A stretch of DNA of 64,000 nucleotides, taken from positions 1-64,000 of the forward strand of contig JABJBP010000027.1 of assembly GCA_018665815.1 (NCBI GenBank). Reading direction: 5' to 3'. Below the pieces are notes generated by a model. It saw only the letters and a program-made list of their open reading frames with translations. It made no database searches and was not told the origin of the DNA. Positions 54,238 to 63,116 of the stretch are shown piece after piece. The stretch's first letter is position 1, and each line of letters opens with the position of its first letter. The stretch is from Rhodospirillaceae bacterium (GTDB lineage: Bacteria > Pseudomonadota > Alphaproteobacteria > Rhodospirillales > Casp-alpha2). A program made the translations under genes and the position numbers.

Positions 54238-54867
54238 CTAGAAATCAAGCAAGCCCTTGCGCTCTTTCTTGCGCACGATCTGCGGCGTTTCGCCTTCGTT
54301 GATGGGCTTGCCCAAGGCTTCGTTCTGCATGATCCGCTGGCGTTCCTTTTTCGGATCAACAACGGTGCCCTTCGCCGATTTGTCATCGACCCAGAAGATC
54401 AGTTTGTTGACGAACAATTGATCTTCTTCCGCCAGCACGGAGGATTCCTGGTTGATCGTCTTGCGAATGCCCGGCTCGGCGGTATTGGCACCGGTGTTTT
54501 TCAGCAATGTTTGCAGGCCCGGGCTCGACGGTGCCGGCGGGGTGCGGTTAAGTGCGCTTGCCGGTTGGCGGCCCAGCATCGCGGATTTTGCGACGTTGGT
54601 TGTATTGGTCAATGCCGGCGGTTGGGCGTTGGCATCGGGCGGGCGTAGACCGAAGCTTGGCGGCAAACTCAATGGCGGGCGCTTGTAGACAACAAATTCA
54701 TCAGGCGCGCGCTTGCCGCCGCCGAAGGCTTTTTTGGCAGATTCGCATCCCGCGACCGCCGCCGAAAAGGCTGCGATGCAAAGACACAATCCAACTTGTT
54801 TTATCAATTTTCTACTCACAGAAAAGAATCTACGCCTGGGATCGCAAAATTTCAACCGTTCACGCAT
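54238..54867 (-). CDS. DUF3035 (BamF-type) lipoprotein
   Basis: 209 residues from ATG 54867, overlapping the lspA stop. A signal peptide with lipobox AVAGC yields a lipidated Cys near residue 41. The mature N-terminus contains APDEFVVYKRPPLSLPPSFGLRPP, the hallmark of the DUF3035 family, which has been linked to the alphaproteobacterial BAM outer-membrane assembly complex as BamF. The Pro-rich middle and charged C-terminus (KKERKGLLDF) are family-like. A start at 54885 is also possible. Confidence 0.88.
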   Translation of the reverse strand: MRERLKFCDPRRRFFSVSRKLIKQVGLCLCIAAFSAAVAGCESAKKAFGGGKRAPDEFVVYKRPPLSLPPSFGLRPPDANAQPPALTNTTNVAKSAMLGRQPASALNRTPPAPSSPGLQTLLKNTGANTAEPGIRKTINQESSVLAEEDQLFVNKLIFWVDDKSAKGTVVDPKKERQRIMQNEALGKPINEGETPQIVRKKERKGLLDF

Positions 54868-55342
54868 CATCGGCACTGGTGACAAATGAATCCCAGATCA
54901 ATATGGCGGCGCCGCAGAAGATCGCGGAGTCGGCGATATTGAATGCCGGCCAATGGTATCCGGCAGCATGAAAGTCGAGAAAATCAACGACCGCGCCGAC
55001 AAACACCCGATCCCAAAGGTTGCCCACGGCGCCGCCGATGATCAACCCCAAGGCGCCGGCGATCCAGGGTTTTTCGGCCCGCCACATCCAGACAATCAGC
55101 GCGATGGTAATCGTCGCGGCAAGTCCCGCCAAAAGCCAGCGCCCCGTATCACCATGCATGTTGAACATGCCGAAGCTGACGCCGCGGTTGTAGCCAAGAA
55201 CCAGATTGAAAAACGGCGTCACTTCAATCACTTGGGGCGGGCGCATGACCTCGGTGACGATCCACCACTTGGTCAATTGATCAAGGGCCGCCGCCAACAG
55301 AGCCAGGCCAAGGCCAATGCGTAGGTTCACGGATCTACTCAC
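54860..55342 (-). CDS. lspA: Lipoprotein signal peptidase
   Basis: 160 residues from GTG 55342 (a GTG at 55330 is an alternative). Four membrane spans and the aspartyl-peptidase signature: [18 protein letters not shown] and [13 protein letters not shown], with the catalytic Asp pair. It removes signal peptides from prolipoproteins, including probably the DUF3035 lipoprotein encoded next. Overlaps ileS by eight bases. Confidence 0.94.
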
Positions 55343-58160
55343 CAAGCGGTTTGAAATGATCCGCCGCGTCGGCACAACGCCCACACGCGCTTGGATGCGC
55401 ATCAATGCTGCCGACATCATCAAGCACTTGATAACAGCGCTCACATTTTTCACCGGACGCCATCAACGGCACGACGGCAACGTCGGCAATGTCGTCCACG
55501 GTGAAGGCGTCGGCGGGGGCAGTGTCGGCGGAGAATTGTGCGTCTGATGTGATGAACAGTTCGGCAGCATCAATGCCGTCGAACAATGTGGCGGTATCAG
55601 GCGTGGTGTGAACCACCGCCGCGGCCTGTAGGCTCGATCCAATACGCTTCTCGGCGCGTTCTTTTTCCAAGGCGCCGGTAACGACCCTGCGCACTGCGCG
55701 GATGCCTTGCCATTTCTCCATCAATGCATCGTCACGCCAGGCGTCCGGAATATCGGGGAAGGTCAGCAGGTGGATGCTGTTTTCCGGCGACATATCGCCG
55801 CTGCGGGCCAGCCAGGCCTCTTCCGCGGTGAAACAGATGAACGGCGCCAGCCATTTCGTCAGGCAGTTAAACAGTTCGTCCAGCACAGTCCGCGCGGCGC
55901 GGCGTTTGGCGTTGTCCAGCCGGTCGCAATACAGGCTGTCCTTGCGGATATCCAAATAGAACGCCGACAGATCGACGGTGCAGAAATTGTGCAGCTCACT
56001 GAAGAAGGTATGGAATTGAAAATCGTTGCAGGCCTCACGCAACCGCTTGCCCATGCGCCACAATCGGTCGAGAACCCAGCGCTCGAGCTCCGGCATGTCA
56101 GATTGTGCAACGCGTTCGTCATCGGAAAACCCATGCAGGTTGCCCAACAGGAACCGCAGTGTATTGCGAAGCCGGCGGTAAACATCGGAATTCTGTTTGA
56201 CGATATCCTGTCCGACGCGGAGGTCTTCCGCATAATCCGAGCTGATCACCCAAAGCCTGAGGATATCCGCACCCTGTTGATTGTAGATGTCTTGTGGCGA
56301 GACAATGTTGCCCAGCGATTTCGACATCTTCTGGCCGTCCTCGGCCATGACGAACCCATGCGTCAGCACGGCATCATAAGGGGCCCGGCCCCGGGTGCCG
56401 CAGGATTCCAAAAGGCTGGAATGGAACCAGCCGCGATGCTGGTCGGTGCCTTCCAGATAGAGCGACGCGGGCCAGCTAAGCTCCGGGCGGTCCTCCAGAA
56501 CGAACGTGTGGGTGGAGCCGGAATCAAACCAGACGTCCAAAATGTCAGTGACCTGCTCGTAATCGTCGGCGTCATAGTCCTCACCTAGGAACCGTGACGG
56601 TGGAGACGCGAACCAAGCGTCGGCGCCTTCGTCATTGAAGGCTTGGATGACGCGTTCCATGACGGCGGGATCGCGGAGCGGCTCATCGGTTTCCTTGTTG
56701 ACGAAAACCGTGATCGGCACGCCCCAGGCGCGTTGTCTGGAAATCACCCAGTCGGGTCGGTCAGCGATCATGCCGCGCAGCCGGCGTTGACCGGATTCCG
56801 GAACGAACCGTGTTTCATCAATCGCCTTCAAGGCAATTTCGCGAAGCCCGTTGGTCTCCATGGAAATGAACCATTGCGGGGTGTTGCGGAAGATTAACGG
56901 CTGCTTCGAGCGCCAGCTGTGCGGATAGCGATGTACGAGTTTGCCTTTACCCAGCAGGCCACCGGCCGCATTGATGGTTTCGGCGACGTCGTCATTGCAC
57001 TTATAGACGTGCTGGCCTGCGAACAGCGGGACGTGGTCGAAATACTTACCGTCTTCGCCGACCGTCTGTGGCACTTCGATGTCGTTCGACATGCCCAGCA
57101 CCCAGTCATCGGCGCCGTGTCCCGGCGCGATGTGCACGACACCTGTGCCTTCTTCGGTCGTCGCGAAATCGGCGGCCAGGGCGGGTACGTCATAATCGTA
57201 GCCTTGACCGCGGAGCGGATGCGCACAGATCGTCCCGGCGAGCGCGTTGCCTTTTAACGTGGCTTGAACCGTATGTCCGGTGATCCCGCATTCGGTTGTC
57301 ATGGAATCCAGCAACGCCTCGGCGACGACCAGCCTATCACCGACTTGGGCACGGCTGTCGTCCGAGACCGCAGTGATTTCAAATACCACATAGTCAAAGT
57401 TGGCACCGTAGGCCACGGCGCGGTTGCCGGGCATGGTCCACGGCGTTGTTGTCCAGATCACAATGGCCGCGCCGTCGAGCGCCGGGTCAGAGGGCGTGAT
57501 GATGGGGAAGCGGACGAAAATCGTCGTCGAAGTGTGGTCGTGGTATTCGACCTCAGCCTCCGCCAGAGCGGTTTTTTCCACCGGCGACCACATCACCGGT
57601 TTTGATCCCCGGTACAAGGATCCATCCATCAGAAACTTGCCCAGCTCGCCGGCGATCCGCGCCTCGGCGGCGAAGCTCATGGTCGTGTAGGGATTGTCCC
57701 AATCACCAATGACGCCCATGCGCTTGAATTCTTCGCGCTGCACGTCGATCCATTCTTCCGCGAACTCTCGGCATTCTTGGCGAAACTCGACAACGGGTAC
57801 AGCGTCCTTGTCTTTTTTCTTTTTGCGGTACTTTTCTTCGATCTTCCATTCGATGGGCAAACCGTGGCAATCCCAGCCGGGAACGTAATTGGAATCCTTG
57901 CCCAACATCTGATGGGTGCGGACGACGACGTCCTTGAGAATCTTGTTCAGTGCATGGCCGATGTGCAGATGCCCGTTGGCGTAGGGCGGGCCGTCATGAA
58001 GGATGAATTTCTCGCGGCCTGCTGAGGCTTCGCGCTGGCGCTGGTAAAGGTTCGTGTCTGCCCAACGCTTCAGCATCTCGGGCTCGCGCCTCGGCAGGCC
58101 GGCTTTCATGGGAAAATCGGTCTTCGGCAGATAGACGGTTGATTTGTAGTCCTGGGTCAT
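55335..58160 (-). CDS. ileS: Isoleucyl-tRNA synthetase
   Basis: 941 residues, class I. HIGH motif [16 protein letters not shown] (about residues 57-72), CP1 editing domain, KMSKS in [11 protein letters not shown], anticodon-binding helices, and a C-terminal zinc finger with [10 protein letters not shown] and ACGRC. Full bacterial type 1 length. It lies between ribF and lspA as in many alphaproteobacteria. Confidence 0.98.
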
Positions 58161-58193
58161 GGCGGATCTTTGCGGTCTCGGCTGAAAGTAGGT

Positions 58194-59153
58194 TTAAGCG
58201 GGCTCGGCGGCCAGAATAGTGCGGGCTTCCTCAGTGTCGGCGGCGATTTGTGCCCTCAATGCATCCAATCCGTCAAACTTCTTTTCGGCACGGATGTGTT
58301 CGATCAAATTGACGACGATCAGTTGCCCGTAAAGATCATCATCAAAATCCATCAAATGGGCCTCTAAAATAACGTCTTCACCACCGAAGGTCGGACGCTT
58401 GCCGACATTGGCCACGCCATCGCGCCACACGAGTTCCGGGTTTTTGCACTCGCCGTCAGCAAGGCCGACCCTTACGGCATAAACGCCGCGCTTCGGGCGA
58501 ACGACGCTGCCCAAGTGCAGGTTGAGCGTGGGAAAACCGATGGTTCGTCCACGCTGGTCGCCGGTCGCGACGCGACCCTCAATGGCGAAGGGGCGGCCGA
58601 GGATTGCGGCCGCGCCACGCACGTTACCTTCGGCAAGGCAGGCGCGAATACCTGTCGACGAATAAATCTCGCCGCCCTCGCTCTCAACGGCGCTGACGGC
58701 GGTGAAGCCAAAACCCAATTTTTGACCCATACCCAGCAGCATTTCACAGTTGCCGCCACGGTTGTGGCCGAAGACAAAATCGTAGCCGGCAACGACATGG
58801 CGCGCGCCGAAGCCGTCCACCAGGACTTCGGCGACAAAATCTTCCGCCGGACGTTGGGAAAACTCGCGGTTGAAACGCTGGACGATCATCGTATCGACGC
58901 CCATGGCTTCCAGGGCCCGGGCCTTGGCTCGGAAAGGGGTCAGGCGAAATGGCGGCTGATCGGGCTGGAAGACCCGCCTGGGGTGCGGCTCGAAGGTTAG
59001 CACGGCCCATGGAATGCCGGCCCCTTCGGCAATCCGACCGGCTTCGCCGATCACTGCTTGATGGCCCAGGTGCACACCGTCGAAGTTTCCCACCGCGATG
59101 GCGGCGCCGCGGGCCTCTTCAGGCAAGGTTTTGTAATGTCTGTAGATACGCAT
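58194..59153 (-). CDS. ribF: Bifunctional riboflavin kinase / FMN adenylyltransferase
   Basis: 319 residues from ATG 59153. The N-terminal nucleotidyltransferase domain has IAVGNFDGVHLGHQAVIG, and the C-terminal riboflavin kinase domain has GRTIGFPTLNL and the kinase Glu region (VILEAHLMDFDDDLYGQ). It makes FMN and FAD. A longer in-frame start (59300) crosses the terminator of the upstream MaoC gene and is rejected. Starts the ribF-ileS-lspA run. Confidence 0.96.
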   Translation of the reverse strand: MRIYRHYKTLPEEARGAAIAVGNFDGVHLGHQAVIGEAGRIAEGAGIPWAVLTFEPHPRRVFQPDQPPFRLTPFRAKARALEAMGVDTMIVQRFNREFSQRPAEDFVAEVLVDGFGARHVVAGYDFVFGHNRGGNCEMLLGMGQKLGFGFTAVSAVESEGGEIYSSTGIRACLAEGNVRGAAAILGRPFAIEGRVATGDQRGRTIGFPTLNLHLGSVVRPKRGVYAVRVGLADGECKNPELVWRDGVANVGKRPTFGGEDVILEAHLMDFDDDLYGQLIVVNLIEHIRAEKKFDGLDALRAQIAADTEEARTILAAEPA

Positions 59154-59181
59154 GGCGGCACAAGGTGCCCGCCAAATGCCC

Positions 59182-59213
59182 AAAAAACAAGGGCGCCCGC
59201 GTGACGGGCGCCC
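59182..59213 (-). terminator. Rho-independent terminator downstream of the MaoC-family gene
   Basis: A perfect 9-bp stem GGGCGCCCG (59191-59199) / CGGGCGCCC (59205-59213) with a five-base loop. On the minus strand it is followed by TTG and a six-base T run (59182-59187). It separates the MaoC gene from ribF, so ribF needs its own promoter in the remaining 30 bases or relies on read-through. Confidence 0.88.
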
Positions 59214-59238
59214 CTGCGAATTGGGAGGGTCTTTAAAT

Positions 59239-59691
59239 TCAGGGGAGGCGCGTCGGCACCATGATCGTGGCCTCGCCATCGACCACCGGTTTACCGGCAA
59301 CGGTGCAAACGGTTTTCAGTTCAATAAAACGTTTTTCCGGGATCAACTTGGTGACCGTGCAGGTCGCGGTCACCGTGTCGCCGGAGCGTACCGGCGCTTT
59401 GAAACGCAAATTCTGGCTGACATAAATGCAGCCCGGTCCAGGCATTTTGGTGCCGATGACCGTGGAAATGAAGCTGGCGGTCAGCATGCCGTGAGCGATC
59501 CGGCCCTCGAAAATGGTTTCGGCAGCGAACTCATGGTTCAAATGGACCGGATTGGTGTCACCGGAAATACCAGCGAAGGTGATGATGTCCGCGTCGGTAA
59601 TGGTTTTCGCGAAGACATCAACCATGCCTTCTTCCAAATCTTCAAAATAATAGCCGTGCAGCATATCATTTGAGTTCACGACCTGATCCAT
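59239..59691 (-). CDS. MaoC-family (R)-hydratase-like protein (PhaJ-like)
   Basis: 150 residues from ATG 59691, with AGGA seven bases upstream. Hot-dog fold with the hydratase motif: D-x4-H in GDTNPVHLNHEFA (catalytic Asp/His) and GRIAHGMLTASF. This matches short (R)-specific enoyl-CoA hydratases that supply (R)-3-hydroxyacyl-CoA for polyhydroxyalkanoate or act in acyl-CoA metabolism. A solitary gene with a strong terminator and two TTGC-N3-GCAA boxes upstream, a layout that fits PhaR-type control. Confidence 0.9.
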   Translation of the reverse strand: MDQVVNSNDMLHGYYFEDLEEGMVDVFAKTITDADIITFAGISGDTNPVHLNHEFAAETIFEGRIAHGMLTASFISTVIGTKMPGPGCIYVSQNLRFKAPVRSGDTVTATCTVTKLIPEKRFIELKTVCTVAGKPVVDGEATIMVPTRLP

Positions 59692-59728
59692 GTCGGTGTC
59701 CTTTATAATAATTATTCGTGCGTCAGTA

Positions 59729-59739
59729 TTGCGGCGCAA
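59729..59739. promoter_or_regulatory. TTGC-N3-GCAA box 1 (PhaR-like site)
   Basis: TTGCGGCGCAA, 38 bases upstream of the MaoC-family start. With the second box 19 bases away (centre to centre) it forms a pair of TGC-N3-GCA sites. PhaR regulators of polyhydroxyalkanoate metabolism bind TGC-N3-GCA-type motifs; the match here is by core pattern only. Confidence 0.5.
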
Positions 59740-59747
59740 CAAGATTA

Positions 59748-59758
59748 TTGCAATGCAA
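59748..59758. promoter_or_regulatory. TTGC-N3-GCAA box 2 (PhaR-like site)
   Basis: TTGCAATGCAA inside the longer palindrome TATTGC-AAT-GCAATA (59746-59760 region). Lies in the gap shared with the divergent M23 peptidase gene, so it could affect either promoter. See box 1. Confidence 0.5.
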
Positions 59759-59795
59759 TATATAAAAGGAAGCCAAGGGGGCAGCAATAGAGCTG

Positions 59796-60932
59796 ATGAA
59801 AACTTTATTGCACTGCCAGAAACCCCCGACAGATTTCGTGAAGACGCCGCCTCGTGAAATTGCTATGTCATCTAATATGGTTCGATTTTCTAGCTACCCA
59901 TGCCGCTTCAATAGGTTTTTGAAGAAAACCAGTGGAGCCCTTGTGTCCGCGGTATTTTTGTTTGCCGCCACGAGCGAAGGAAGCGAGCCGGCACCATTGA
60001 GGCTTGGGCTTCCCATAGATTGCCGTTTGGGCACGGATTGCTGGTTGGTCAACCTGGTTGATTTGGATCCGTCAAAAGGCGTCAAGGATTACCTTTGTCA
60101 GCGACATAGTTATAATGGCCACAAGGGAATTGATATCGCGATTCGCGACCTCCGGGCGATGGAAGACGGCATGCCCGTGATCGCGGCGGCATCCGGCACC
60201 GTGAAAGCCTTTCGCGACGGCATGGCCGACCAACCACCGACGCCTGAGTTTCGCAAGACCGGCCGTAAGCGTTATTGCGGCAATGGCGTGGTTGTTGATC
60301 ATCCGGGGGGCTGGCAAACGCAATATTGCCATTTGCGAAAAGGTTCCATCGCCTTGACCAAAGGACAGGCCGTCAGGGCTGGCGATCGGTTGGGGTATGT
60401 CGGCCATTCGGGCATGGCTGAGTTTCCACATGTCCATTTATCTGTGCGCCATCAAGGTAAGGTGGTTGACCCGTTTCTGGGTTTGGAAAAGACATCTGCC
60501 TGTGGCTTAGGCGCCGCTGCACTTTGGACGGCACCGGTCCTTCAGCAACTGACAGCGCCTCTGAGCGCCATCTACAATGCCGGCTTCGCGCCGACCAAGC
60601 CGAAAGTTTCCGCGGTCCGCAAAGGTCTTTATAAGGCGCCGGCATTGTCACGGCGGTCACCGGCATTGGTTTTTTGGGCGGATATTTTTTGGGTCCGTGC
60701 CGGCGATCGTTTGACCATGACAATCACCGGGCCGGACGCCGCAAAGATCACCGAACGCGCCAATGTCTTGCCGAAAAGCCAAGCGCGTCGCATCATCTTC
60801 GCGGGTCGAAAGAAGAAGGGATTATTCTGGCCCGCCGGGACGTATACAGGCCACGTGGTCTTGGAGCGGCATGATCCAAACCGGCCCACCAGCCGTTTCG
60901 AATTGACCCGCAAAGTCGTGTTGAAGGATTAA
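59796..60932 (+). CDS. M23-family peptidase (LytM-type murein endopeptidase-like)
   Basis: Up to 378 residues. The peptidase domain (about residues 100-240) carries the LytM zinc motif H-x3-D in GHKGIDIAI and the second HxH in FPHVHLSVRH, so the site is complete. The C-terminal region (about 270-378) is a beta-rich domain of unknown role. The N-terminus has a hydrophobic segment (GALVSAVFLFAATSEG), consistent with export. Starts at 59865 or 59877 are alternatives to 59796. It probably trims peptidoglycan during cell growth or acts as an activator. Confidence 0.85.
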   Translation: MKTLLHCQKPPTDFVKTPPREIAMSSNMVRFSSYPCRFNRFLKKTSGALVSAVFLFAATSEGSEPAPLRLGLPIDCRLGTDCWLVNLVDLDPSKGVKDYLCQRHSYNGHKGIDIAIRDLRAMEDGMPVIAAASGTVKAFRDGMADQPPTPEFRKTGRKRYCGNGVVVDHPGGWQTQYCHLRKGSIALTKGQAVRAGDRLGYVGHSGMAEFPHVHLSVRHQGKVVDPFLGLEKTSACGLGAAALWTAPVLQQLTAPLSAIYNAGFAPTKPKVSAVRKGLYKAPALSRRSPALVFWADIFWVRAGDRLTMTITGPDAAKITERANVLPKSQARRIIFAGRKKKGLFWPAGTYTGHVVLERHDPNRPTSRFELTRKVVLKD

Positions 60933-60943
60933 TTGAGGCGCGC

Positions 60944-61324
60944 ATGAACGATAAGACCAATAGCAACGATGCCGGCTTCGACGCCAAGCTCGATCAGCTC
61001 CGCCAGGCCTTCGCAGACGAGTTGGTCAAGCGCCTCGGCGCGCTGGCCGAAGGAATGGCTGAATTTGATGCCGCAGATGCTGAATTTGATGCCGCAGATA
61101 TCGACGCTGATCGGGCGGCTGCTTTGAGCACGCTGGAAGAACGTGCCCATGTCCTAGCGGGTTCCCGTGCTTTGTTTGGTTATCCGGAAATTGGCGCTGC
61201 GGCGGGGGCGTTGGAAGAAGCCAGTGGCAATGGTGTCGGCGCGCCGAGTGCGCCGAATACGGAATCGTCCGTGCGCGGATCTTGGGCACGCCTCAGAGCG
61301 GCGGCCGACGACATCAAAAATTAA
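60944..61324 (+). CDS. Hpt-domain-like small protein
   Basis: 126 residues. The C-terminal half has the Hpt four-helix pattern EERAHVLAGSRALFGYPEIGAAAGALEEA, with His in the AHxLAG position that accepts phosphate. The N-terminal half is acidic, with a duplicated AEFDAAD. It would be a phosphorelay intermediate, but no histidine kinase or response regulator is adjacent. It follows the M23 gene after 11 bases, so it may share its transcript. Confidence 0.72.
   Translation: MNDKTNSNDAGFDAKLDQLRQAFADELVKRLGALAEGMAEFDAADAEFDAADIDADRAAALSTLEERAHVLAGSRALFGYPEIGAAAGALEEASGNGVGAPSAPNTESSVRGSWARLRAAADDIKN
61058..61099 (+). repeat. Exact 21-bp tandem duplication inside the Hpt-like gene
   Basis: The 21-base unit at 61058-61078 is repeated without any change at 61079-61099, encoding AEFDAAD twice. 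Being exact and in-frame it is probably recent, generated by replication slippage, and would lengthen an acidic linker before the Hpt region. Confidence 0.85.
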
Positions 61325-61361: not shown

Positions 61362-61856
61362 TCAACGTTTCAATTTACGGCGCGAGACCAGTCGAGGTTG
61401 AGCGCTAAGGCCCCCTGGACCTGACGCTTTGCGCTTCGTTGCGAGTGTTTTCTGGACCTTCGGTTTGGCGGCCTTTCGGTTTGCCTTTGGTTTTTCGTCG
61501 TCCAGAAAATCATCATCCTCAAACAGTTTGGAACTGCTTTTAGCGGCCTCGGCCTTGGCATCGATCATCGCCAGTGTGCGCTCAACCAAGGGATGGCGTT
61601 CAAGGCGTTTGCGAGTTTTCCCTTCATGAATCTGGGCGATACCGGCAACCAACTTCCGGATTGCCGCCGGTCGATGGGTGCTTTCACTCCAGCGCGCGAA
61701 TGCCGCGACCGTCCACGGGTTTGCCGGCACCGGGTTCAGGCCTCTCGACTGGCACCACTCGACGAACTGTTCCCAGGCCTTGTTGGTCACGGCGCGCGGA
61801 CGATGTTTCGCTGGCCGCCGGCGTTTGGGTGGTCGGTCTTGAAATTGTCGGTTCAT
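61362..61856 (-). CDS. Orphan recombinase core-binding (SAM-like) domain protein with basic tail
   Basis: 164 residues from ATG 61856. Residues about 18-80 (AWEQFVEWCQSRGLNPVPANPWTVAAFARW to VAGIAQIHEGK) resemble the N-terminal core-binding domain of tyrosine recombinases/phage integrases. No catalytic domain (no RHRY) follows. The rest is a Lys/Arg/Ala-rich tail (SSSKLFEDDDFLDD then KAAKPKVQK), like a nucleoid-associated protein. A DNA-binding role is likely; recombination is not possible with this protein alone. Opposes the neighbouring plus-strand genes. Confidence 0.68.
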   Translation of the reverse strand: MNRQFQDRPPKRRRPAKHRPRAVTNKAWEQFVEWCQSRGLNPVPANPWTVAAFARWSESTHRPAAIRKLVAGIAQIHEGKTRKRLERHPLVERTLAMIDAKAEAAKSSSKLFEDDDFLDDEKPKANRKAAKPKVQKTLATKRKASGPGGLSAQPRLVSRRKLKR

Positions 61857-61970: not shown

Positions 61971-63116
61971 ATGACGGCTCTTGATATCGGTAGGGAAAGT
62001 TTGATGACCCAAGACGGTGCATGGGAAGGCTATCGGGCCTTCGTCGTCGATCGAAAAGAACCGGAAAGCGATACGGTCACGTCGTTTTATCTGGTGCCTC
62101 AGGACGGCGGCGCCATTGCGCCGCACCACGCCGGGCAGTATCTCGGGTTTTCGCTGCAGGTGCCTGGCCGGATGACGCCGGTTATTCGGACCTACACGAT
62201 CTCCGAAGCCGCCGCCGACCAAGATCATTATCGGCTATCGATCAGACGCGAATTGGCACCGCCCGATGCGCCCGACGCGCTGCCGGGCGTGTCATCGAAT
62301 TTTTTCCATGACCATGTTGAGGTCGGCACTGAATTGCAGGTGCGCGCGCCCGCCGGAGATTTCGTTGTCCGCCCGGAAGGCAAGGGTTCGGTGGTGCTGT
62401 TGTCCGGGGGCATCGGCTGCACGCCGATGTTTTCCATGCTGCAAGCCATCGCCGCCGCCGACACAACCCGCGACGTTTGGTATGTGCACGGCGTGCGCAG
62501 CGGCGCTGAACATGCATTCGGGCCGGAAATTCGGGTTATTGCCGCCGCCCACGACAATATCCGCGCCCATGTCTGCTACAGCCAACCCGGCGCCGGCGAT
62601 GTGGCGGGTACGGACTACGACACGGAAGGTCATGTCACATCTGATCTGTTGAAAGAATTGCTGCCCGATACCCGGCCGATGTTTTATTTGTGCGGCTCAA
62701 CGCCGTTCATGAAATCCATGTACAACGGCCTGATCGAATGGGGCGTCGACGAGCTGCAAATTTTCTACGAGTTCTTCGGTACCGCATGTGAGTTGAAAGA
62801 AAAGCCACCGGTGACCGCGGAAAGCGCCGCTGCCGACATGGGCCTCGCTGCCGATACCAGTTTTCAGGTCGAATTTCGCCAATCAGGTGTGAGCGCCACC
62901 TGGACACCGGCGTCGGGCACCATTTTGGATTTGGCCGAGGCCAATGGCGTTGATCAGGATTTCATCTGCCGGGCTGGCATGTGCCACACCTGCTTGTCGA
63001 CGGTCTTGGAAGGCGAGACCGCTTATCTGCACGATGACGTGGTGCCGCCGCCAGGCGACGACGAGGTGTTGATCTGCTCGGCACGGCCGAAGACTGATGT
63101 TGTCATTGATGTTTGA
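61971..63116 (+). CDS. Flavin reductase / 2Fe-2S oxidoreductase (ferredoxin-NADP reductase-like with C-terminal plant-type ferredoxin)
   Basis: 381 residues: an FAD-binding beta-barrel (RTYTISEA, residues about 68-75), an NAD(P)-binding domain (VVLLSGGIGCTPMFSML) and a C-terminal ferredoxin domain with 2Fe-2S ligands in CRAGMCHTCL plus a later Cys (LICSARP). The architecture is that of the reductase part of flavohemoglobins or HCP reductase (Hcr)-like enzymes, without a globin. Its electron acceptor could be a hybrid-cluster protein, an oxygenase or a Rieske protein such as the one at 8.6 kb, but none is adjacent. Start at 61971 or 62004. Confidence 0.88.
   Translation: MTALDIGRESLMTQDGAWEGYRAFVVDRKEPESDTVTSFYLVPQDGGAIAPHHAGQYLGFSLQVPGRMTPVIRTYTISEAAADQDHYRLSIRRELAPPDAPDALPGVSSNFFHDHVEVGTELQVRAPAGDFVVRPEGKGSVVLLSGGIGCTPMFSMLQAIAAADTTRDVWYVHGVRSGAEHAFGPEIRVIAAAHDNIRAHVCYSQPGAGDVAGTDYDTEGHVTSDLLKELLPDTRPMFYLCGSTPFMKSMYNGLIEWGVDELQIFYEFFGTACELKEKPPVTAESAAADMGLAADTSFQVEFRQSGVSATWTPASGTILDLAEANGVDQDFICRAGMCHTCLSTVLEGETAYLHDDVVPPPGDDEVLICSARPKTDVVIDV

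What the first reader, a model, noticed from the sequence alone, without database searches (positions are those of the whole stretch)
61362..61856. Integrase core-binding domain without a catalytic domain, plus basic tail
The first 80 residues look like a tyrosine-recombinase core-binding domain, but the rest is a Lys/Arg/Ala-rich tail instead of the catalytic domain. This could be a directionality or architectural factor, or a domesticated DNA-binding protein.
Basis: partly seen in the sequence, partly recalled or inferred. Interest (0 to 1): 0.5.

Follow-up and report, generated by a model that had tools for sequence, protein, structure and literature searches.

The report
Half-recombinase kept as DNA-binding protein
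Bacteria of one order keep, usually at one fixed place in the chromosome, a small basic protein made of only the DNA-gripping half of a DNA-cutting recombinase, most likely reused as a DNA-binding protein whose exact job is still unknown.

Summary
The ORF is on the minus strand (61362-61856, 164 aa). Residues ~15-117 are a tyrosine-recombinase core-binding (CB) domain: single-sequence hits to full-length recombinases, a profile hit to Cre (E 1.7e-5) and predicted fold (Cre CB, Z up to 15.2). Homology ends where the catalytic domain would begin. It is not a one-strain truncation: 45 of 47 other genomes of its genus and family and 82 of 259 in its order (Rhodospirillales by contig titles) have it. 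Seventy orthologues form one branch apart from 26 recombinases (99/100), show purifying selection and mostly sit beside ribF-ileS (35 of 42 testable loci). The tail is not plain low complexity: LF..DDF and a C-terminal P-x-L-V motif are conserved (P and L in 70 of 70). Best explanation: a vertically inherited, exapted CB-only DNA-binding protein, more likely architectural or regulatory than a directionality factor. DNA binding and partner are inferred, not shown. Precedents: plant ALOG solo CB domains and the dead-recombinase repressor MrpR/YopR. My literature searches found no bacterial CB-only family. New variant of a known kind.

The parts
61362..61856 (-). CDS of the CB-only protein, 164 aa plus stop (P0001)
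   Evidence: orthologues. Start codon uncertain: most orthologues begin near residue 19-21
61803..61856 (-). N-terminal extension, residues 1-18, basic, mostly absent from orthologues (may be a start-codon error)
   Evidence: (roughly 60-90% gaps in these columns)
61533..61802 (-). core-binding (CB) domain, residues 19-108, four helices H21-37, H47-59, H63-80, H89-108; invariant W28 W34 C35 P44 W48
61506..61526 (-). LFEDDDF motif, residues 111-117 (LF in 65 of 70); the last residues that align with recombinases, against the start of their catalytic domain
61419..61505 (-). Lys/Ala/Pro-rich low-confidence linker, residues 118-146 (net positive in 57 of 70 orthologues)
61365..61409 (-). conserved C-terminal peptide, residues 150-164; P154 and L156 in 70 of 70
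61971..63116 (+). divergent neighbour: FAD/NAD/2Fe-2S oxidoreductase (not part of the protein; directly adjacent in 18 of 75 loci)
59796..60932 (+). M23 peptidase, tail-to-tail neighbour, conserved locus marker
55335..59787 (-). maoC-ribF-ileS block (lspA beyond, 54860-55453), locus marker on the same strand as the CB-only gene
   Evidence: maoC scanned; the names ribF, ileS and lspA are recognised by recall from the translations

Best explanation
It is a chromosomal, vertically inherited, exapted fragment of a Cre-type tyrosine recombinase. An ancestor kept the CB domain and a few residues of the catalytic domain; the rest was replaced by a basic tail, predicted disordered, that ends in a conserved peptide. 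SHOWN by computation: CB homology and predicted fold, no catalytic domain, one branch, a mostly fixed place, purifying selection, two conserved tail motifs, pI above 9. INFERRED: the CB domain still binds double-stranded DNA, without cutting; the cationic linker adds sequence-independent backbone contacts; the C-terminal P-(K/R)-L-V-x-R-R peptide docks on a partner or on a second copy. Most likely net effect: a nucleoid-type architectural or broadly acting regulatory protein of the host chromosome, not a mobile-element directionality factor.
For: CB homology; fold. Homology ends at the catalytic start. Orthologues: 76 of 100 sampled relatives (79 match at E<=0.01; G065, G086, G088 are weak or recombinase matches; 75 of the 76 were read, G079 was not fetched). 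In 259 genomes of the order (>=85% complete) 82 have an orthologue, at 112-182 bits over most of the model; matches in long recombinase ORFs (>=318 aa) score at most 53 bits, on the CB part. One branch, 99/100, 70 rows against 26 recombinases. Locus: with >=7 kb held downstream, ribF and ileS each on the same strand in 35 of 42, M23 opposite in 34 of 42. dN/dS 0.02-0.57 in the 45 computable of 46 pairs at 75-99.5% identity (pairs overlap). pI 9.2-12.0 in 73 of 73. W48 in 70 of 70 orthologues and 0 of 26 recombinases. Residues 38, 55, 75, 80, 82-84, 93, 101 are Lys/Arg in 61-89% of orthologues and 0-23% of the recombinases. Tail motifs.
Against: No DNA-binding experiment. Basic residues that the recombinases favour at 69, 78, 92, 96, 99 and 100 are lost or reduced here, and the model's first helix starts only at residue 21, so DNA binding may be changed or lost. 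No conserved binding site was found; an inverted-repeat test upstream was weak. The gene is missing from 177 of 259 genomes of the order and from one same-family genome whose M23-maoC-ribF-ileS block is intact (G013), so it is not essential everywhere. Two of 75 loci carry an in-frame stop (G002, G053). Seven of 42 testable loci lack the ribF-ileS context. The linker is not net positive in 13 of 70.
Confidence: 0.65

Rival explanations
1. Local, sequence-specific repressor: the CB domain, perhaps as a dimer, binds an operator in the intergenic region and controls its own gene and the divergent neighbour, as MrpR/YopR does in prophage SPbeta.
For: Divergent arrangement with the oxidoreductase next door in 18 of 75 loci. 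In one genus an inverted repeat (12-10-12 bp in L016 and L020) lies 54-87 bp upstream. MrpR is a dead recombinase fold acting as repressor (PMC10516654, abstract and passages).
Against: Upstream repeats exceed all 12 shuffles in 12 of 73 loci against 5.6 expected, with related loci counted apart, and their sequences differ between lineages. The repeat pattern occurs once in each of two genomes scanned, but the reversed control also occurs in one of them. The divergent neighbour is not conserved across the order, and in genomes with the repeat it is another gene.
Confidence: 0.22
2. Modulator of a resident full-length tyrosine recombinase such as XerC/XerD: the CB domain and C-terminal peptide form a mixed complex or occupy half-sites, raising or lowering recombination.
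For: CB-CB contacts are part of recombinase assemblies (recalled). W48, invariant here and in 0 of 26 recombinases, sits at the start of the second model helix and could be a new interface.
Against: No full recombinase gene near any of 75 orthologues. No co-occurrence test was run.
Confidence: 0.1
3. RNA-binding or protein scaffold: the helical domain lost DNA binding and the basic tail binds RNA or ribosomes.
For: Basic tail; altered basic residue set in the CB domain. Weak profile matches to ribosomal eL24/TRASH-domain chains (E 0.11-0.97) are probably composition.
Against: The CB fold is well conserved, the linker is not.
Confidence: 0.1
4. Decaying integrase remnant or pseudogene.
For: Two of 75 loci have an in-frame stop; absent from 177 of 259 genomes of the order.
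Against: Many families of the order carry it, dN/dS below 0.6, invariant residues beyond the breakpoint, mostly fixed locus.
Confidence: 0.02

Closest known systems
Cre-type simple tyrosine recombinases (Cre, and the recombinases of the same class in A2)
   Same: CB domain by sequence profile and predicted fold
   Different: No catalytic domain; first CB helix short or lacking in the model; own tail motifs; W48
ALOG/LSH proteins of plants (PMC3537659; abstract and passages read)
   Same: Mostly solo CB-type domain flanked by low-complexity extensions, derived from a recombinase
   Different: Plants; ALOG has an inserted zinc ribbon, the window protein has one cysteine; different tail
MrpR (YopR), master repressor of prophage SPbeta (PMC10516654; abstract and passages read)
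   Same: Recombinase fold turned into a DNA-binding regulator; YopR is among the fold matches (Z 6.6, a weak score)
   Different: MrpR keeps CB and a degenerate catalytic domain and is prophage-encoded; this one is CB-only and chromosomal
Ndc10 DNA-binding domain (yeast kinetochore)
   Same: Among the fold matches (Z 7.1); a recombinase-like fold used at chromosomes (recalled)
   Different: Much larger eukaryotic protein; Z is within the range of common helical arrangements

Membership tests
Tyrosine recombinase / phage integrase family | CB domain | tested here: met
Tyrosine recombinase / phage integrase family | Catalytic domain with Arg-Lys-His-Arg-His/Trp and Tyr nucleophile | tested here: not met
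   ORF ends 56 residues after residue 108; alignment stops at the catalytic start; no PF00589 hit
ALOG domain proteins | Zinc ribbon inserted in a solo CB-type domain | tested here: not met
   one cysteine (C35) in the window protein. ALOG versions without the ribbon exist in some plant defence proteins, so this alone is not absolute
MrpR-type dead recombinase repressors | CB plus degenerate catalytic domain | tested here: not met
   no catalytic domain
Recombination directionality factors (excisionases) | Gene linked to an integrase gene or mobile element | tested here: not met
   no full recombinase in 0.94 Mb around 75 orthologues, one weak fragment near G096; mobile elements of other kinds were not searched
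Nucleoid-associated proteins | Small, strongly basic chromosomal protein | tested here: met
   126-180 aa with the start codons I chose, pI 9.2-12.0, 73 of 73
Nucleoid-associated proteins | Abundant, chromosome-wide DNA binding | not testable with these tools
   needs proteomics and ChIP-seq

The most novel reading that the evidence does not exclude
Much of a bacterial order carries a resident chromosome-binding protein made from the DNA-gripping half of a Cre-type recombinase with a new C-terminal docking peptide: a bacterial counterpart of the plant ALOG story, acting as a nucleoid protein or broad regulator with a DNA-binding fold that I did not find described among bacterial host regulators.
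Probability: 0.5. Interest if true: 0.65.

Novelty: new variant of a known kind. Interest (0 to 1): 0.5.

Why it matters
If it binds DNA, it shows that bacteria too have turned the CB half of a recombinase into a stand-alone host protein, with full-length relatives in the same class for a before/after comparison. It also marks a blind spot: a large tyrosine-recombinase survey works from an alignment of CB plus catalytic regions (PMC8138268, passages), and no Pfam or NCBIfam model matched the window protein, nor gave more than scattered weak matches among 70 orthologues.

Tried and rejected
Family libraries: no convincing hit in Pfam, NCBIfam, PHROGs or PADLOC for the window protein or the 70 members (PADLOC and PHROGs members at E<=0.01). 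Weak matches such as Bestrophin_2 in 16 of 70 (best E 0.0012) and PHROG 3127 (0.027) were judged chance or composition.

Beta-clamp-type Q-x-x-L-F reading of the LF motif (motif recalled): Q at that place in only 5 of 70, rejected. Shared C-terminal motif elsewhere in the genome: 20 pattern matches against 32 for the reversed control; only the protein itself has over 100 open codons before the motif and a stop within 40 after it. Operator search: inconclusive. In-situ ancestor: in 14 loci from genomes without the gene, ribF and ileS are there in 14, maoC in 11, M23 in 6, and nothing matches the profile better than E 0.29; some of these loci are short (G032 3 kb). The donor recombinase stays unknown. 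The tree lacks Cre, XerC/XerD and the other short ORFs of L155-L157, so it does not prove a single origin.

Papers: searches found no description of a bacterial CB-only family; only open-licence PMC papers are held, so this is weak. PMC8987985 was read by passages only.

Full report
What is there. The coordinates hold an intact minus-strand gene of 164 codons plus stop; the plus strand in that frame has a stop. Most orthologues start near residue 19-21, so the first 18 residues may be a local extension or a start-codon error.

It is a CB domain. The single sequence finds full-length recombinase ORFs in relatives and 44 plasmid records, in the 20 listed on the CB part only; 19 of these 20 are annotated integrases or recombinases there, one is unannotated. 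The 70-member profile finds Cre (E 1.7e-5) and its derivative Tre, and no other chain below 0.1. Against 26 full-length recombinases of the same class: 98.7%, E 1.8e-16, residues 15-117, ending where the recombinases enter their catalytic domain; the LFEDDDF motif aligns with that first catalytic element, weakly. These 26 were chosen as matches to the profile, so the score is not independent. In reverse, the profile of the 26 finds the gene in 75 of 75 orthologue loci (E 1e-19 to 3.5e-8), with its main match in each within positions 25-149 of 321. Three of the recombinases were scanned and are PF00589. The predicted structure has four confident helices (21-37, 47-59, 63-80, 89-108), a short fifth (114-117) and a low-confidence tail (mean pLDDT 77). 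Foldseek's first 32 matches are all Cre/Tre, E from 0.0055, none below 0.001. VIA-align gives Z up to 15.2 and 1.8 A over 89 residues to 1pvq_B (Z 14.9); the first row outside the Cre/Tre group has 8.7 (integron integrase). The tool warns that helical models can reach about 13-14 without kinship.

It is a family, not a truncation. 79 of 100 genomes match at E<=0.01; 76 of them hold an orthologue, 75 were read. In the genus and family it is 45 of 47 other genomes. In 259 genomes of the order at least 85% complete, 97 match the profile at E<=0.001, of which 82 have an orthologue and 15 only long recombinase ORFs; the two classes are well apart (112-182 bits against at most 53). A few orthologues lie in long stop-to-stop frames (up to 466 aa), and only those read were checked for short architecture. 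In 386 genomes drawn across the class, at most 10 candidates scored in each, 26 match, and only the window's own genome reaches an orthologue-level score. Of 64 named contigs found by one peptide pattern, 4 name another group (a Chlamydiae, a Rhodobacterales, two Methylocystaceae MAGs); the rest are Rhodospirillales-type or unspecific. Two contigs titled Magnetovibrio equal in length the contigs of two genomes in the window's genus. The tree puts the 70 on one side of one branch, 99/100, with a warning about few columns.

It is kept by selection, mostly at one place. Of 42 loci with at least 7 kb downstream, 35 have ribF, 35 ileS on the same strand and 34 the M23 gene opposite. The 45 computable of 46 pairs have dN/dS 0.02-0.57. 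Against this: 2 of 75 loci have an in-frame stop; 177 of 259 genomes of the order have no orthologue; G013 of the same family lacks it although M23-maoC-ribF-ileS is intact.

Anatomy specific to the family. W28, W34, C35, P44, W48, P154 and L156 are invariant in 70. W34, C35 and P44 are common in the recombinases too; W48 is in none of the 26. Basic residues have moved: among others 38, 55, 75, 80, 82-84, 93 and 101 gained; 69, 78, 92, 96, 99 and 100 lost or reduced. The tail has LF in 65 of 70, a linker of 9-37 residues (K 19%, A 16%, P 12%; net positive in 57 of 70) and a P-x-[L/I]-[V/T/A/I]-x-[R/H/K]-[R/K] end in 63 of 70, 4 residues from the C-terminus in 34 of those 63. All 73 readable proteins have pI above 9.

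How it probably works. Inference: fold and charge favour non-cutting DNA binding; the tail adds electrostatic contact; the conserved end peptide implies a partner or self-association. No linked recombinase and vertical inheritance favour a role at the host chromosome. Whether this is architecture or regulation is open; an inverted repeat upstream in one genus is a lead for regulation but fails as a family-wide signal.

Known counterparts. [quoted passage not shown] MrpR/YopR is a recombinase fold turned repressor (PMC10516654, abstract and passages). The survey PMC8138268 calls CB and CAT ubiquitous in tyrosine recombinases and builds its alignment on both (passages). I found no bacterial CB-only family in the searches. 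Verdict: a new family and a new variant of the known theme of exapted recombinases; interest moderate because function is unproved.

Noticed in passing
L156:1783-2382 (minus), L157:1640-2206 (plus), L155:55-513 (minus): Other short CB-only ORFs (stop-to-stop 153-200 aa; likely products about 110 aa in L156 and L157) in two genomes of one genus of another family (G111, G230); L156 hits Phage_int_SAM_1 (1.6e-5). They look like independent CB-only genes.
   Followed up: partly
L016 and L020, 54-87 bp upstream of the CB-only gene: 12-10-12 bp inverted repeat in the intergenic region of one genus; its 7-bp-arm pattern occurs once in each of two genomes (G009, G020), reversed control once in G009.
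   Followed up: partly
window 60944-61324 (+): 126-aa Hpt-domain protein between the M23 gene and the CB-only gene, with a short repeat near 61060-61100; its cluster shows in no other row.
   Followed up: no
L007, upstream of the orthologue: Several tandem copies of TTTACGATCTAGGGGTTT upstream of the gene in G042, fewer in its relatives.
   Followed up: no
L005 and L076: Orthologues with an in-frame stop in two genomes (G002, same genus as the window, and G053): assembly error or recent loss.
   Followed up: no
L175:1120-2517 (-): 466-aa ORF with two successive CB-type matches, like the RitA recombinases described in PMC8138268.
   Followed up: no
L105: An orthologue on a 4.3-kb contig filed as an uncultured Chlamydiae MAG, probably a binning error.
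   Followed up: no
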